Shown: piece by piece, positions 1 through 6,897 of the stretch | Numbering within the stretch: the first letter of the stretch is position 1 | How the letters are laid out: the number at the start of each line of letters is the position of its first letter | Assembly (NCBI GenBank): GCA_040752395.1 | Contig: JBFMHD010000149.1 | Span: 1 to 6,897, forward strand | Direction of reading: 5' to 3' | Source: JBFMHD01 sp040752395 [NCBI: Candidatus Hydrogenedentota bacterium] | GTDB lineage: Bacteria > JBFMHD01 | DNA: 6,897 bases | Translations under genes and position numbers: made by a program | Notes under the pieces: model-generated | Databases searched by the model: none | Seen by the model: only the letters and a program-made list of their open reading frames with translations | Told to the model about the DNA's origin: nothing

Positions 1-251
1 CCGGTTAGGGGTCGGGAGTCGTGAGGCGCAAGTCGTGAGTCAAAACAGGTCTCGAGACTCAAGACTCAAGACTTTTCAGCAGGCTTTTGGCTTTTGGCTC
101 CAGCCGGCTGTAGTCCGTAGCCTGTAGCCTGTCCTGATACTTCTCACTTCCCACTTCTTACTTCTTACTTTTTTCGTTATCTTGCATCTTGCATCTTGCT
201 TCTTTCGTTATCTTTTTTTTCCGTTATCTTGCTTCTTGCCTCTTGCTTCTA
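1..251. repeat. Heptad-period repeat tract, left copy (cut by window edge)
   Basis: From base 2 to 204 the sequence can be cut into 29 consecutive 7-base units without a phase break. Neighbouring units resemble each other and drift gradually: GAGTCGT/AAGTCGT types (16-43), CTCGAGA/CTCAAGA (51-71), TTTGGCT (86-99), TCCGTAG/CCTGTAG (107-127), TCTCACT/TCTTACT (142-169), TTATCTT/GCATCTT (177-204). After 204 the phase slips in T-runs, then resumes as GCTTCTT-type units to 251. Two perfect 10-bp palindromes lie inside, at 49-58 and 101-110. A closely related copy in the same orientation lies at 6614-6767. No credible protein is encoded: the reading frame that enters icd from here is a hydrophobic translation of the repeat. 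Base 1 is probably not the true left end. Confidence 0.9.
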
Positions 252-2078: not shown

Positions 2079-2085
2079 GATAGTT

Positions 2086-2269
2086 GTGAATGATAAGATT
2101 AAATACTGGGTTGAGCTTTCTGAATACGATTTCGAAACGGCAAAAAATGCTGGAAACAGGAAGATATCTCTATGTTGGTTTTATGTGTCATCAAACGGTT
2201 GAGAAAATCCTGAAAGCATACTGGCAATCAAGGTTTTTAGGAGAAAAGCCTGAAATCTTTATAAAATGA
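2086..2269 (+). pseudogene. Frameshifted, truncated HEPN-domain gene remnant
   Basis: From the GTG at 2086 (an in-frame ATG lies at 2077, inside the -10 box) the first frame reads NDKIKYWVELSEYDFETAK and, left alone, stops at 2200-2202. If one base is removed from the six-A run at 2142-2147, the reading continues as MLETGRYLYVGFMCHQTVEK, then ILKAYWQSRFLGEKPE, up to the TGA at 2267-2269. The join is the classic N-terminal half of a HEPN domain: a lysine/tryptophan helix, then the ETAK-MLETGRY-YLYVGFMCHQ-EKILKAYW helices. About 60 residues survive of a domain usually over 110 long, and the C-terminal half, where the catalytic Rx4-6H motif of HEPN ribonucleases usually sits, is missing. HEPN proteins of this size commonly pair with a MNT nucleotidyltransferase as toxin-antitoxin; no MNT gene is visible. 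The stop overlaps the sucC ATG. A sequencing error in the A-run could explain the frameshift but not the lost 3' half. Confidence 0.75.
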
Positions 2270-3423
2270 AATTACAAGAGTTTCAATCTAAAAAGATATT
2301 TAAGGAACATAACATACCAGTCCCTGATGGTATAGCTGCGGGCAATGTAAAGACCGCTATCTGTAATTTAAAAAAGTTTAAAAAATATCCTTTAGTGATC
2401 AAAGCGCAGGTCTTAGCAGGTGGTAGAGGCAAAGCTGGTGGCATTAAGATCGCTAAAAATAAAAAAGAAGCAGAAAAATATATTAAAAGTATTTTAGGTA
2501 TGAATCTTATCACGCATCAGACATCGGCTCAAGGAATCAAGGTAAGAAAGATATTAATCGAAGAGTGTGCTGATCTATTAAAAGAATATTATTTCGGGAT
2601 GCTTATAGACAGAAGTAAAAAAGACATCTGTATTATAGTAAGTTCTGCAGGCGGTATGGAGATAGAAGAAATAGCAAAAGAAAAACCAGAAGAAATTATA
2701 AAGATTAATATTGACCCGAATATAGGACTCAGGGCTTTCCATATCTTTGACTTAATTAAAAGCCTGAAACTAACTAAAGAGACACAACAGGGGTTTGCTA
2801 ATATAATAAAAAGACTTTATAACCTGTTTATAGCTATTGATGCTTCGCTTGTAGAGATTAATCCATTTGGGTTATTGAAAGATAACACCTGGCTTGCGAT
2901 TGATGCTAAAATATTACTCGATGATAATTCGTTATTTAGACACCCAAACTTAGAAAAATTAAGAGATGTTTACGAAGAAGACGAACTTGAAAGATTAGCA
3001 AGAATAAAGAAGGTAAATTACGTCCGACTTGATGGTAATATAGGCTGTATGGTAAATGGTGCAGGGCTCGCTATGTGTACTATGGATCTAATAAAACATT
3101 ATGGTGCTTCGCCTGCTAATTTCCTTGACATCGGCGGCGGCGCTAAAGCTGAACAGGTGACTGAAGCTTTGAAAATTATTGTAAAAGACCCGAAAGTTAA
3201 AGGGATACTTATAAATATTTTTGGTGGTATTGTCAGATGTGATGAGGTAGCTAAAGGGTTTGTTGAAGCATTGAAAACTCTTAAATTGGACCTACCTGTG
3301 GTTATTCGACTAACAGGCACTAATCAGGATATAGGTATAAATATCTTAAAAGAACAAAAAATCGCGGTCTTCTCTGAAATGGATGACGCATTAAAAGAAA
3401 TTGTTAAAAAGGTCAAATTATGA
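2266..3423 (+). CDS. sucC: Succinyl-CoA synthetase (ligase), beta subunit
   Basis: Nucleotide-binding subunit of the cytosolic enzyme that interconverts succinyl-CoA, phosphate and a nucleoside diphosphate with succinate, CoA and the triphosphate. The 385 residues match bacterial SucC in length and run nearly in register with E. coli numbering. An N-terminal ATP-grasp domain (about 1-235) opens with [20 protein letters not shown] and carries K46, the AGGRGKAGG loop (51-59), and Mg ligands N199 (VEINP) and D213 (AIDAK). The C-terminal ligase domain (about 250-385) has [22 protein letters not shown] and [11 protein letters not shown], which form the phosphohistidine-facing and dimer surfaces. 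No good SD precedes the ATG: the nearest AGGAG (2239-2243) is 22 bases away. The ATG overlaps the TGA of the second HEPN frame as ATGA, so its initiation is either leader-dependent or coupled. The gene ends in another ATGA overlap with sucD. ADP or GDP preference cannot be decided here. Confidence 0.97.
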
Positions 3424-4292
3424 GCATACTCATTGATAAAAATACTAAACTTGTGGTTCAGGGTATAACAGGTAGAGAGGGTGGGTTCCATACCCAAAAG
3501 ATGATTGAGTATGGTACCAACGTCGTCGCTGGTGTCACACCTGGTAAGGGAGGTGAAAAAGTTTTAGGAGTACCTGTATTTGATTCAGTTGATTCTGCTG
3601 TTAAAGAAAAAGGTGCAGATACCGCTGTAATCTTTGTTCCAGCAGCTTTTGCTCCTGATGCTATAATCGAAGCCGCATTAACTGGTATTAAACTTATTGT
3701 TTGTATAACCGAGGGTATCCCTGTTATTGATATGGCTAAAGTAATGAGTATTATAAATAAGATGGGTGTCAAATTAATAGGGCCTAATTGTCCGGGGATT
3801 ATAAGTCCGGGTAAAGCAAAGATAGGAATTATGCCTGGATATATACATAAACAAGGTAATATTGGTGTTATATCAAGAAGTGGAACACTCACCTATGAGA
3901 TTGTCTATAATTTAACTAAAGACAACTTAGGTCAATCAACCTGCATTGGTATTGGTGGCGATCCTGTTACTGGGATGTATTTTATTGACTGTTTGAAGGA
4001 ATTTAAAGATGATAAAGAGACAGAGGCTGTTGTTATTATAGGTGAGATAGGTGGCTCCAGCGAAGAAGAAGCAGCGGTTTATATAAAGAGAGAGTTTAAT
4101 AAACCTGTGGTCGCTTTTATTGCAGGTCAGACAGCGCCACCTGGTAAACGAATGGGACATGCAGGTGCTATCATCTCAGGTGGCAAGGGCACAGCTTTAG
4201 AGAAGATTAAAGTTTTACAGGACTGTGGTATTAAAGTTGCAAAAACACCATCTGAAATCCCGGGACTGATACGATCAGCCTTAACGCATTAA
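3420..4292 (+). CDS. sucD: Succinyl-CoA synthetase (ligase), alpha subunit
   Basis: CoA-binding, phosphohistidine-carrying subunit that pairs with SucC. At 290 residues it has the usual bacterial length. The N-terminal Rossmann CoA-binding domain (about 1-130) shows [14 protein letters not shown] at 15-28, the AGVTPGKGG loop at 37-45 and [11 protein letters not shown] at 121-131 with the conserved cysteine C124. The C-terminal ligase domain carries GIGGDPVTG at 177-185, the glutamate of IGEIGG (E209) that contacts the active histidine, and [14 protein letters not shown] with the phosphorylated H247 (E. coli H246). The ATG overlaps the sucC stop by four bases, the standard arrangement for translational coupling and equal subunit supply. 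korD follows after 12 bases, tying the synthetase directly to the enzyme that makes or consumes its succinyl-CoA. Confidence 0.98.
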
Positions 4293-4304: not shown

Positions 4305-4574
4305 ATGACTAACGAGAAGTATCTATGTTTTAATTTAAGCTGGTGTAAACGATGCAGATTATGTGCATATATCTGTCCTAAGAATGTTATTGATTTTGAT
4401 GAAAAGGGGTTCCCGTATGCTGCTCGATTAAATGATTGTATCCAGTGCGGTCAATGTGTAACCTATTGCCCGGATTTTGCTATTATCGGCGTTAAAGAAG
4501 AAAAAGAAAAATTAATATTAAATCGATATATTGATGAAAATACCAATATAAGAGAGGTAGAGATAAATGCCTGA
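4305..4574 (+). CDS. korD: 2-oxoacid:ferredoxin oxidoreductase, ferredoxin-like delta subunit
   Basis: An 89-residue 2x[4Fe-4S] ferredoxin-type protein that carries electrons from the thiamine site of the KorAB core towards external ferredoxin. Two CX2CX2CX3C motifs are complete: C14, C17, C20, C24 and C45, C48, C51, C55, each followed by Pro as in bacterial dicluster ferredoxins. C8 is an extra cysteine. A charged, glutamate-rich tail (about 64-89) follows the cluster domain. The ATG at 4305 is preferred over an in-frame TTG at 4296, which would add three residues; neither has a clear SD, so translation may be coupled to sucD 12 bases upstream. The 3' end overlaps korA by 8 bases. The order ferredoxin, alpha, beta, gamma is that of the four-subunit KorDABC enzymes. 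Confidence 0.93.
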   Translation: MTNEKYLCFNLSWCKRCRLCAYICPKNVIDFDEKGFPYAARLNDCIQCGQCVTYCPDFAIIGVKEEKEKLILNRYIDENTNIREVEINA

Positions 4575-5697
4575 ACGAATAGCATTTCTGCAGGGCAATG
4601 AAGCCTGTGCTGAAGGCGCTTTACTTGCTGGTGTGCAATTTTATGGTGGATATCCAATAACACCTTCAACTGAAATAGCTGAGCTTTTAAGTAAAAGGTT
4701 GCCAGAGATTGGTGGAAAATTTATTCAGATGGAAGATGAGATAGCGGCTTTGGGTGCGTGTATCGGTGCTTCGCTCACAGGCTTAAAATCTATGACTGCT
4801 TCAAGTGGACCAGGGATGTCCTTAAAACAGGAACATATAGGTTACGCAGCGCTTTGTGATGTACCGGTTGTTATAGTTGATGTTCAGCGTGGGGGACCAT
4901 CAACCGGGCTCCCAACTCAGGTATCTCAAGCTGATGTTATGCAGGCACGATGGGGAACTCATGGTGACCATCCTATTATTGCGATTGCACCATCAAGTGT
5001 TGAAGAAGTTCTATACATGACTATCAAAGCATTTAATCTATCTGAGAAACTGATGACACCAGTAATTGTTTTAACCGATGAAGTTATAGGTCATATGAGA
5101 GAGAAAGTGAAGATACCTGACAAAGATAAGATAGAGCTATGGGAGAGAAAGAAACCAGCTGTTTCACCCGAGGATTATAAACCATTTGATACAGATGATG
5201 ACGATATACCTGCACTTGCAACTTTCGGGAGTGGATATAGATATAATGTAACAGGACTGATGCATGACAGAGCTGGGTTCCCAACCACAAGACCAGATGA
5301 AGTCCAGGATTTGCTCGATAGAATCCATAGAAAAATAGAGAAACATATTGATATTATAACTGATGTAGAATATTACGGTGAAGAAAATGCTTCTTTGGGA
5401 TTTATCTCCTATGGTTCAAGTGCAAGAACAACAAAAAAAGCTGTTCAAGTACTGAAACAAAAAGGCATTAATACGAATATGATGAGAATAAAAACTCTCT
5501 GGCCGATACCTGCTAAAGAAATATTTGAGTTCTGTAAAGACAAAGAAAAAGTTTTTGTAGTAGAAATGAATATGGGACAATATATACATCCTGTTAAAAG
5601 TGTCTCGGATGACCCATATAAAATAAAAGGGATTTACAGATACGATGGTGATTTTATAACACCACGGGAAATTATTGATAGAGTCGGGGGGTTTTAA
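4567..5697 (+). CDS. korA: 2-oxoglutarate:ferredoxin oxidoreductase, alpha subunit
   Basis: Catalytic alpha subunit of the CoA-dependent reaction 2-oxoglutarate + CoA + oxidised ferredoxin to succinyl-CoA + CO2 + reduced ferredoxin, reversible in many anaerobes. The 376 residues fit the family. The PYR-type domain (about 1-190) starts with FLQGNEACAEGALLAG and the signature YPITPSTE (29-36) including the substrate-facing Thr32, then MEDEIAALG (55-63), TASSGPG (77-83) and DVQRGGPSTGLPTQ (105-118). Domain II (about 275-376) shows FISYGSSARTTKKAV, RIKTLWPIP and VEMNMGQ. The protein is not fused to a gamma domain. An AGAGAGG-like SD (4551-4557) lies about nine bases before the ATG, inside the korD coding end. 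The family also includes enzymes for branched 2-oxoacids; the 2-oxoglutarate assignment rests mainly on the flanking icd and sucCD. Confidence 0.93.
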   Translation: MPERIAFLQGNEACAEGALLAGVQFYGGYPITPSTEIAELLSKRLPEIGGKFIQMEDEIAALGACIGASLTGLKSMTASSGPGMSLKQEHIGYAALCDVPVVIVDVQRGGPSTGLPTQVSQADVMQARWGTHGDHPIIAIAPSSVEEVLYMTIKAFNLSEKLMTPVIVLTDEVIGHMREKVKIPDKDKIELWERKKPAVSPEDYKPFDTDDDDIPALATFGSGYRYNVTGLMHDRAGFPTTRPDEVQDLLDRIHRKIEKHIDIITDVEYYGEENASLGFISYGSSARTTKKAVQVLKQKGINTNMMRIKTLWPIPAKEIFEFCKDKEKVFVVEMNMGQYIHPVKSVSDDPYKIKGIYRYDGDFITPREIIDRVGGF

Positions 5698-5703
5698 TCA
5701 ACG

Positions 5704-6573
5704 ATGGACGCTAAAGTAAAAGAACGAATGACTAATCCTATGCACAATTATTTAAGGCCCAAAAAGAAGTTCCCTACTGTTTGGTGTGCAGGATGTGGGA
5801 ACGGCATAGTACTTCAGAGTATAGTATCAGCGATTGATTCTTTAGGTTTAGATAGAAACAAGGTAGTGCTTGTTTCAGGCATAGGGTGTTCTTCGCGTGC
5901 ACCGGTGTATGTTGATTTTAATTCATTACATACCACCCATGGCCGAGCGATCGCATTTGCTTCTGGTGTTAAGTTTGCTGACCCACAATTAAAGGTTATA
6001 GTTATAACAGGTGATGGTGATGCTGTTGCAATTGGTGGAAATCATTTTATACATGCTTGTAGAAGAAATATGGATATCACAGCGATAGTTTTCAATAACT
6101 ATATTTATGGTATGACAGGCGGTCAGGTGTCGCCGACCACACCCCAGTCTGCGTTTGCTTCAACCTCGCCACATGGTAATATTGACCAACCATTTGATAT
6201 ATGTGAGCTTGCGATAGGTGCAGGCGCATCGTTCGTAGCTCGAACCACTGTCGCACACCCTAATCTTTTATATCAATATATATTACAGGGGTTAAAAAAT
6301 AACGGGTTCTCAGTAATAGAAGTCTTGGTTAATTGCCCTACTAACTTTGGCAGACGAAACAAACTTGGGGACGCTGTTAATATGATTAAAAGTTTGAAAG
6401 AGATGGCCATAACTATGGATTCACTTAAAAGTAAATGGATGAAAGAGCAGAACATAGATTTGTCTGATTTAGAAAAACACATTCTGACCGGAATATTTAC
6501 AGATATAAAAAAACCGCGATTTATTGAGAATTATGCCTCACTTATTAAACGATTACAAAGATTGAAAGATTGA
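5704..6573 (+). CDS. korB: 2-oxoglutarate:ferredoxin oxidoreductase, beta (thiamine diphosphate) subunit
   Basis: Beta subunit that binds thiamine diphosphate and the proximal [4Fe-4S] cluster. In 289 residues it shows YLRPKKKFPTVWCAGCGNG (16-34), the thiamine-Mg motif GDGDAVAIGG (103-112) closing with the Asn pair N131/N132, and NYIYGMTGGQVSPTTP (132-147). The cysteines C28, C31, C62 and C211 have almost the spacing of the four cluster ligands of two-subunit archaeal homologues, so the cluster is probably intact. It starts six bases after korA; a G-run at 5686-5691 is the only SD-like element. The last codons (R-L-K-D and the stop) lie within an 8-base tandem array that continues downstream, so the C-terminal few residues may be repeat-derived rather than ancestral. 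Confidence 0.94.
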   Translation: MDAKVKERMTNPMHNYLRPKKKFPTVWCAGCGNGIVLQSIVSAIDSLGLDRNKVVLVSGIGCSSRAPVYVDFNSLHTTHGRAIAFASGVKFADPQLKVIVITGDGDAVAIGGNHFIHACRRNMDITAIVFNNYIYGMTGGQVSPTTPQSAFASTSPHGNIDQPFDICELAIGAGASFVARTTVAHPNLLYQYILQGLKNNGFSVIEVLVNCPTNFGRRNKLGDAVNMIKSLKEMAITMDSLKSKWMKEQNIDLSDLEKHILTGIFTDIKKPRFIENYASLIKRLQRLKD

Positions 6574-6612
6574 AAGATTAAAAGGAAAGGCACAGAGGCA
6601 CAAAGTATGAAA
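6553..6612. repeat. Octamer-period array straddling the korB stop
   Basis: Seven or so consecutive 8-base units hold one phase: TTACAAAG (6553), ATTGAAAG (6561), ATTGAAAG (6569), ATTAAAAG (6577), GAAAGGCA (6585), CAGAGGCA (6593), CAAAGTAT (6601). The first two and a half units are korB coding sequence and the third supplies its TGA. The array passes without a gap into the heptad tract at 6614. Only the ATTGAAAG and GGCACA parts are clearly repetitive; the outer units are degenerate. Confidence 0.65.
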
Positions 6613-6613
6613 A

Positions 6614-6767
6614 GAGTCACAAGTCGCAAGTCGTGAGTCAAAACAGGACTCGAGACTCAAGACTTTTCAGCAGGCTCTTGGCTTTTGGCTCCAGGTGGCT
6701 GTAGTCCGTAGCCTGTAGCCTGTCCTGACACCTCTCACTTCTTCTGTTATCTTGCTTCTTGCTTCTA
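6614..6767. repeat. Heptad-period repeat tract, right copy
   Basis: Exactly 22 consecutive 7-base units with no phase break, from GAGTCAC (6614) through AAGTCGT (6628), CTCGAGA (6649), TTTGGCT (6684), CCTGTAG (6712) and TCTCACT (6733) to GCTTCTA (6761). Compared with the left copy over 30-134 against 6628-6725, it differs by four substitutions and by the loss of exactly one heptad (one CTCAAGA). The later pyrimidine-rich part also has fewer units. It is in the same orientation as the left copy and sits inside the kor gene cluster, between korB and korC. No gene is seen in it. Confidence 0.92.
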
Positions 6768-6836: not shown

Positions 6837-6897
6837 ATGCGAAAGATTTCTGGTAGATACGATATAAGATTAAGTGGTTCAGGTGGTCAGGGACTTG
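6837..6897 (+). CDS. korC: 2-oxoacid:ferredoxin oxidoreductase, gamma subunit (5' end only)
   Basis: Only 20 codons are inside the window: MRKISGRYDIRLSGSGGQGL. The pattern of a short basic start, then a beta strand leading into GxGGQG (GSGGQG at 14-19), is the N-terminal signature of the gamma subunit / domain III of 2-oxoacid:acceptor oxidoreductases. It completes the korDABC set. The start is supported by the strong SD five bases upstream. Unlike the tightly packed genes before it, korC is separated from korB by an octamer array and a heptad repeat tract. The gene runs off the right edge, so its integrity cannot be judged. Confidence 0.88.
   Translation, partial: MRKISGRYDIRLSGSGGQGL

What the first reader, a model, noticed from the sequence alone, without database searches (positions are those of the whole stretch)
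1..251. Degenerate repeat that keeps a strict 7-base phase while its sequence changes
The left tract holds 29 heptads in one phase (2-204) and the right tract 22 (6614-6767), although the heptad sequence shifts through at least six families. A purine-rich start (AAGTCGT) turns step by step into a pyrimidine-rich end (GCTTCTT). Simple slippage would give one dominant unit; here phase is kept and unit identity is not. Heptanucleotide tandem repeats (STRRs) are known from filamentous cyanobacteria, but those I know of repeat one unit. This looks like a mosaic of heptad blocks with a conserved order, possibly a dispersed element of its own. Three heptads equal 21 bp, about two helical turns, so a protein reading one DNA face is conceivable.
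Basis: partly seen in the sequence, partly recalled or inferred. Interest (0 to 1): 0.7.

Follow-up and report, generated by a model that had tools for sequence, protein, structure and literature searches.

The report
Duplicated drifting seven-base repeat tract
Two gaps between genes in this bacterial DNA hold near-copies of one long, worn seven-base repeat; it looks like repeat DNA that grew by replication slippage and was then copied as a block, a little-described variant of a known kind of bacterial repeat.

Summary
The 7-base periodicity is real. Lag-7 identity is 0.60 (left) and 0.55 (right) against 0.28 and 0.25 in dinucleotide shuffles; 0 of 1000 shuffles reach either. The two tracts are collinear copies: 153 aligned bases, 12 substitutions, length differences of 7 and 21 bases, unrelated downstream flanks. 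Shuffling heptad order destroys the match (0 of 500), so the composite was copied as a unit.

One phase across unrelated blocks cannot be shown: junction identities fall to 1-3 of 7. And slippage need not give one unit: a simulation of unit turnover plus point mutation reproduces the decay and the drifting families (71 of 100 runs at the best-fitting rate).

The source genome is not held. In surrogate WOR-3-related genomes, degenerate heptad tracts were the commonest short-period repeat in 5 of 6 genomes sampled, enriched outside genes, with dispersed collinear copies. Hairpins were not specific to heptad tracts.

Verdict: a variant of known intergenic heptanucleotide repeats. How the block is copied is unknown.

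The parts
1..251 (+). Left heptad tract: blocks at 51-73 (CTCAAGA), 82-99 (GGCTTTT), 108-132 (CTGTAGC), 139-170 (ACTTCTC), 179-204 (ATCTTGC), 227-250 (TCTTGCT), before the isocitrate dehydrogenase gene that starts at 300
   Evidence: TRF arrays; lag-7 test
6614..6767 (+). Right heptad tract, a collinear copy of the left one in the same orientation, between korB and korC
   Evidence: alignments, heptad-order shuffle test, lag-7 test
16..196 (+). Part of the left tract that aligns to 6614-6766 of the right one: 153 aligned bases, 12 substitutions, gaps of 7, 11 and 10 in the right copy (11+10 = 21; MAFFT shows one gap of 21)
5704..6573 (+). korB-like gene; the gap between it and the korC-like start at 6837 is 263 bases and holds the right tract
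   Evidence: Pfam TPP_enzyme_C; KorC-like start read

Best explanation
Each tract is intergenic, non-coding repeat DNA that grew by gain and loss of 7-base units during replication (slippage). Point mutations accumulate about as fast as units turn over, so neighbouring heptads resemble each other, distant ones do not, and the unit drifts through 'families'. After the composite had formed it was copied as a block of about 150 bases or more to a second gap; the copies then diverged by substitutions and by loss or gain of whole heptads. Shown here: periodicity, decay of similarity with distance, collinear copying, unrelated downstream flanks, two in-register length differences. Inferred: slippage as the source of the units, escape of 7-base loops from mismatch repair, and recombination or template switching as the copying step. 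It probably does nothing specific for the neighbouring genes.
For: Decaying lag profile 0.62, 0.49, 0.38, 0.30, 0.30, reproduced by unit turnover of one event per substitution (mean 0.60, 0.45, 0.38, 0.34, 0.31; 71 of 100 runs within 0.1 at all five lags, 0 of 100 without unit events). Copies differ by 7 and 21 bases within the conserved part. Collinearity 0 of 500. Downstream flanks unrelated (60 of 200 shuffles align as well). In surrogates: period 7 is the commonest period in G138, G133, G083, G001 and G002; tract bases are non-coding in 2416 of 4886 (G138, 16.3% of sequence non-coding) and 3340 of 4050 (G001+G002, 18.3%); indels are denser in tracts, 4 in 311 columns against 15 in 18,030 outside; a composite on three contigs of G138 differs by a 7-base gap. 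Passages of PMC4679880 and PMC4692102 report heptanucleotide abundance and the polymerase-contact idea; PMC4060949 notes that mismatch repair is poor on loops longer than 1-3 bases.
Against: Of four tract indels between G001 and G002 only one is 7 (sizes 1, 6, 7, 30; the 6 and 1 lie 17 bases apart). A first slippage model that grew tracts from three units fitted poorly (at most 11 of 400 runs), so the fit depends on the model; at other rates of the second model 0-44 of 100 runs fit. Slippage does not explain copying to a second site. G089, in the same phylum, has hardly any tracts (1 period-7 segment in 400 kb). The tail of the window copies does not differ by a multiple of 7 (read).
Confidence: 0.58

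Rival explanations
1. A non-autonomous mobile element: the composite is inserted as a unit by an enzyme acting in trans, and the heptads are only its present body.
For: Collinear copies with unrelated downstream flanks; dispersed collinear tracts in G138; an 83-base stretch between korB and korC of G001 that G002 lacks, with an inverted relative about 3.1 kb away at 88%; korB-korC gaps are usually 40 bases or less, 41 of 47 loci, and 263 here.
Against: Inverted repeats found are internal; no target duplication seen by eye; surrogate copies are mostly short pieces with varied ends. The G001 insert has no significant lag-7 signal (z 1.3) and its relative also matches about 15 bases of the flank.
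Confidence: 0.2
2. A regulatory array: repeated 7-base sites bound by a DNA- or RNA-binding protein upstream of the genes that follow.
For: Both copies lie in the same orientation, ending 48 and 69 bases before a start codon. A passage of PMC4679880 reports a cold-shock protein that binds heptamers such as TTCTTTT, close to the pyrimidine-rich end.
Against: The unit changes along the tract; surrogate tracts show no clear strand or orientation preference; promoter-like sites are not in excess (27 against 22.0, sd 5.4).
Confidence: 0.08
3. A structured RNA or hairpin element whose stems are spaced by seven.
For: Predicted folds show 4-pair stems with 3-base internal loops in both copies; left self-complementarity exceeds 200 of 200 shuffles; 13 of 89 G138 tracts exceed the 99th percentile of shuffles.
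Against: Fold z-scores only -1.6 to -2.0; right copy 48 of 200 shuffles as good; heptad-free gaps in G138 are as self-complementary (75 of 399 against 15 of 89 at score 24); no Rfam match.
Confidence: 0.06
4. Chance low-complexity sequence without real periodicity.
For: Lag-7 identity is low at block junctions.
Against: 0 of 1000 dinucleotide shuffles reach the lag-7 value in either tract; collinear second copy.
Confidence: 0.01

Closest known systems
Heptanucleotide simple sequence repeats of prokaryotes (Mrazek et al. 2007; not read, known here only as cited in passages of PMC4679880 and PMC4692102)
   Same: Unit length 7; slippage linked to the stretch of DNA in contact with the polymerase is the proposed source
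   Different: Those surveys concern simple tandem repeats; here the unit drifts through several families and the whole composite is duplicated
GGGAATC-type heptads of Xanthomonas and GGGGA(C/T)T of Nostoc (PMC4692102, passages)
   Same: Heptads, partly heterogeneous (GGGANTN)n, intergenic, variable length between relatives
   Different: One G-rich core conserved in all units; here no common core
TAACTGA direct repeats of Beggiatoaceae (PMC4679880, passages)
   Same: Intergenic heptads, often upstream of start codons; some relatives have the same genes with a shorter gap and no repeats
   Different: A single fixed unit with few variants; that unit is not in either tract (read)
Four-heptad elements of Geobacter metallireducens (PMC2700814, passages)
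   Same: Short heptad array dispersed as a multicopy element (49 places)
   Different: Consensus unit and four repeats; also within genes
STRR heptads of filamentous cyanobacteria
   Same: Tandem heptads outside genes
   Different: One unit per array (recalled); drifting mosaic here

Membership tests
Intergenic heptanucleotide tandem repeat (broad sense) | Unit length of 7 well above chance | tested here: met
   lag-7 test, TRF
Intergenic heptanucleotide tandem repeat (broad sense) | Lies outside genes | tested here: met
   Tracts lie before the gene at 300 and between korB and korC
Single-unit heptad repeats (STRR, TAACTGA, GGGAATC types) | One dominant unit or fixed core in all repeats | tested here: not met
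   Six TRF arrays with different consensus units on the left; junction identities 1-3 of 7
Cyanobacterial STRR | Host is a filamentous cyanobacterium | tested here: inconclusive
   No close relative found; none of the 54 KorB loci carries a cyanobacterial title, but the host is unplaced
REP- or MITE-like non-autonomous element | Terminal inverted repeats | tested here: not met
   Only internal inverted pairs, 30-41/63-74 and 31-41/56-66 on the left, 6628-6639/6654-6665 on the right
REP- or MITE-like non-autonomous element | Target site duplication | tested here: inconclusive
   Not searched by a tool; none seen by eye around the right copy; only 15 bases upstream of the shared part of the left copy are in the window
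REP- or MITE-like non-autonomous element | Many copies with constant ends in the host genome | not testable with these tools
   Source genome not held
Known structured RNA | Match to a curated family | tested here: not met
   0 Rfam matches at gathering score in the whole window

The most novel reading that the evidence does not exclude
Uncultivated bacteria carry a class of dispersing intergenic element made of heptad blocks: composites with conserved block order that are copied whole into gaps, even between genes of a normally tight operon, by an undescribed process, and that then change length by whole heptads. Heptad blocks shared between this genome and WOR-3-related genomes would reflect common descent or exchange, not convergence.
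Probability: 0.17. Interest if true: 0.6.

Novelty: new variant of a known kind. Interest (0 to 1): 0.33.

Why it matters
Heptanucleotide repeats are reported to be over-represented in bacteria, yet one paper says no detailed literature on them existed in 2015 (PMC4692102, passage). Degenerate tracts like this would be missed by surveys of perfect repeats, so their share in uncultivated phyla may be underestimated (inference). Pairs of collinear composites record how such DNA changes (whole-heptad gain and loss) and spreads, and could help to test why seven is a favoured slippage length.

Tried and rejected
Heptad-phased palindromes: at first striking, then rejected as a specific feature, because heptad-free gaps of G138 are as self-complementary (controls drawn with replacement from 198 gaps) and the right copy is ordinary. 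A block-level test of inverted neighbours was uninformative (0 of 20 adjacent pairs reached 6 of 7 on the inverted match; the segmenter merges arms). A first slippage simulation fitted poorly; the turnover model fitted. Placing the host: best full-length KorB identity 57%, one partial match at 72% on a contig titled Sumerlaeota; SucC 51-52%; isocitrate dehydrogenase 67%. The host is left unplaced. Pieces of the tract in viral contigs: two patterns found 0; three shorter ones found 18, 24 and 15 stretches. Of the 18, 5 have the match inside a period-7 segment; of the other 39, none has one nearby. Plasmids: 4 records matched parts of the tract; the Vibrio harveyi one is a TCTTGCT array, the E. 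coli one has no period-7 segment. Phages: no match. Phyla of G164, G149 and G161: 0 of 40, 0 of 3 and 0 of 82 genomes (the tool warns that an empty answer shows nothing).

Full report
WHAT IS THERE. The window is bacterial DNA (38% G+C) with isocitrate dehydrogenase (300-1550), a CBS-domain protein (1581-1988), both subunits of succinyl-CoA ligase (2266-3423, 3420-4292), a ferredoxin-like protein (4305-4574), two subunits of a 2-oxoacid:ferredoxin oxidoreductase (korA 4567-5697, korB 5704-6573) and the first codons of a korC-like gene at 6837 (the korC name rests on a recalled GxGGQG motif in 20 residues). The two heptad tracts occupy the gap before the first gene and the gap between korB and korC. 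Related loci usually have almost no korB-korC gap: of 49 of the 54 loci given to the script, 47 showed the motif, 41 of these with a gap of 40 bases or less, median -1. The window has 263 (one search printed 264, one too many, because it took the start as 6838). The method takes the last methionine before the motif, so negative values are rough. The five loci left out (L048, L049, L052, L053, L054) are partial matches.

OBSERVATION. Lag-7 identity is far above two kinds of shuffle in both tracts, and TRF reports six period-7 arrays on the left and four on the right with different units. Similarity decays with distance (left 2-204: 0.62, 0.49, 0.38, 0.30, 0.30 for lags 7 to 35; right 0.56, 0.41, 0.37, 0.21, 0.21). 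The tract is a real degenerate heptad repeat. The claim of one strict phase is weaker than it looks. Written in rows of seven, any sequence stays in phase; the claim has content only where neighbouring heptads resemble each other, and at the block junctions they agree at 1-3 of 7 positions. After 204 the left tract visibly shifts.

TWO COPIES. The right tract is a second copy of the left one. MAFFT aligns them with gaps of 7 and 21 bases inside the conserved part. A pairwise alignment of 16-196 with 6614-6766 gives 153 aligned bases, 12 substitutions and gaps of 7, 11 and 10, the last two summing to 21. The 100 bases after the copies are unrelated (60 of 200 shuffles align as well); upstream only 15 bases of the left copy's flank are in the window. 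Shuffling the order of heptads in one copy lowers the score from 107.5 to at most 34 in 500 trials. Block order is thus conserved and the composite was copied as a block. Towards the end of the tract the register is lost: the left copy carries an extra T8 run and a partial 31-base duplication.

DOES SLIPPAGE PREDICT THIS? A model with unit duplication and deletion balanced against substitution shows otherwise. At one unit event per substitution the mean lag profile is 0.60, 0.45, 0.38, 0.34, 0.31, and 71 of 100 runs match the left tract within 0.1 at all five lags (1000 or 3000 events; 44 of 100 at 300). At other rates 0-35 of 100 match, and without unit events 0 of 100. The simulated tract printed in that call, made at two unit events per substitution, shows successive families much as here. 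An earlier growth model fitted poorly (at most 11 of 400). This shows sufficiency, not proof.

SURROGATE GENOMES. The source genome is not held. A genome-collection scan with KorB found no close relative (best full-length identity 57%), and the host stays unplaced. Five of the 54 KorB loci, found without regard to repeats, contain period-7 segments, and 7 is the commonest period there (6 segments; the next, 12, has 4; 673 kb). A search of 147 genomes of the tool's phylum of G001 (whose locus L031 is titled candidate division WOR-3) with the left tract gave matches in 23 at E 0.001 or less, most of them in the 138-250 part; up to five candidates a genome were scored, so counts are lower bounds. 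I sampled genomes from that list. G138 (552 kb, rich, partly chosen around matches): 65 period-7 segments, next period 12. G133 (67 kb, rich): 4, next 1. G083 (131 kb, rich, partly chosen around matches): 10, next 4. G089 (400 kb, chosen for its long contig): 1, while two other periods had 2 each, so not every member is rich. G001 and G002 (192 and 154 kb, partly chosen around matches): 14 and 11, next 3 and 5. By rough gene calls, tract bases are non-coding in 2416 of 4886 in G138, where 16.3% of the sequence is non-coding, and in 3340 of 4050 in G001+G002, where 18.3% is. Gap type and sense-strand purine content show no clear preference, though this was not formally tested.

DISPERSAL AND CHANGE IN THE SURROGATES. 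G138 holds composites in several places. One has three copies on three contigs (the query itself, and 84% twice over 85-88 bases) with a 7-base gap separating copies. One pair shares 94 bases at 90%, about 1.7 kb apart. One pair about 1 kb apart (151 bases, 87%) includes the upstream flank, so it may be a segmental duplication. Of 36 tracts of 50 bases or more, 15 have a partner at a score of 0.6 per base or better, against 4 of 36 after heptad shuffling. Between G001 and G002, indels are concentrated in tracts (4 in 311 columns against 15 in 18,030), but only one of the four is exactly 7 (sizes 1, 6, 7, 30). At the korB-korC junction G001 has an 83-base stretch that G002 lacks (adjoining alignments 97.2% and 96.0% identical), with no target duplication that I could see. 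It has an inverted relative about 3.1 kb away at 88%, which also matches some 15 bases of the flank, and shorter pieces match at many other places (27 matches in G001 and 24 in G002 in all). Its own lag-7 signal is not significant (z 1.3). It is evidence for gain or loss of such DNA, not for heptads as such.

FUNCTION. Folding suggested hairpins with heptad-spaced stems (z -1.96, -1.95 and -1.56), and several G138 tracts read as opposed arms. The control removed this: heptad-free gaps in G138 are as self-complementary. Promoter-like and terminator-like sites are not in excess (27 against 22.0; 3 against 4.2), and Rfam gives nothing. The copies end 48 and 69 bases before start codons, which leaves a regulatory role possible but unsupported.

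COMPARISON WITH WHAT IS KNOWN. I read passages, not whole papers. PMC4679880 and PMC4692102 report that heptanucleotide repeats were found in 2007 to be the most abundant longer-unit class in most genomes, with slippage linked to the stretch of DNA that the polymerase contacts; they describe single-unit or fixed-core heptads in Beggiatoaceae, Xanthomonas and Nostoc. PMC4060949 notes that mismatch repair handles loops of 1-3 bases well and longer ones poorly. PMC2700814 describes dispersed four-heptad elements in Geobacter. Five paper searches were answered, and no title or abstract start in their listings describes drifting, block-ordered heptad composites; most subscription journals are missing from that library. 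The tract belongs to intergenic heptanucleotide repeats in the broad sense, fails the single-unit criterion, and differs by being a composite copied whole: a new variant of a known kind.

Noticed in passing
window 2080-2265: Remnant of a small gene between the CBS-domain gene and sucC: a 58-residue stop-free piece matches the Pfam HEPN domain (E 1.5e-6), another frame's piece matches nothing. It looks decayed.
   Followed up: partly
window 6557-6584: A separate array of period 8 (AAAGATTG, 3.5 copies) at the end of korB, close to the right heptad tract.
   Followed up: no
window 49-72 and 6725-6753: A terminator-like site on the minus strand inside the left tract and a promoter-like site on the plus strand inside the right tract; neither class is in excess over shuffles in the whole window.
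   Followed up: no
L170 2968-3089 and 3961-4074 (G138): Two nearby tracts share their first part, but the last block has ACTGCYY heptads in one and ACTTCYY in the other, as if one position had changed in all units together (by eye).
   Followed up: partly
L189 14124-14343 (G083): A 220-base heptad tract that by eye alternates a few heptads (CTTGCTT, CTTACTT, CTTGCAT) in a higher-order pattern.
   Followed up: no
L131 395-504 (Vibrio harveyi plasmid p2): A TCTTGCT heptad array inside a gene annotated as a hypothetical protein.
   Followed up: no
L032 7430-8000 against L031 7640-8000: Between two close WOR-3 genomes this gap differs in content and length (517 against 303 unaligned bases); the G002 version is full of short degenerate repeats in both orientations, by eye.
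   Followed up: no
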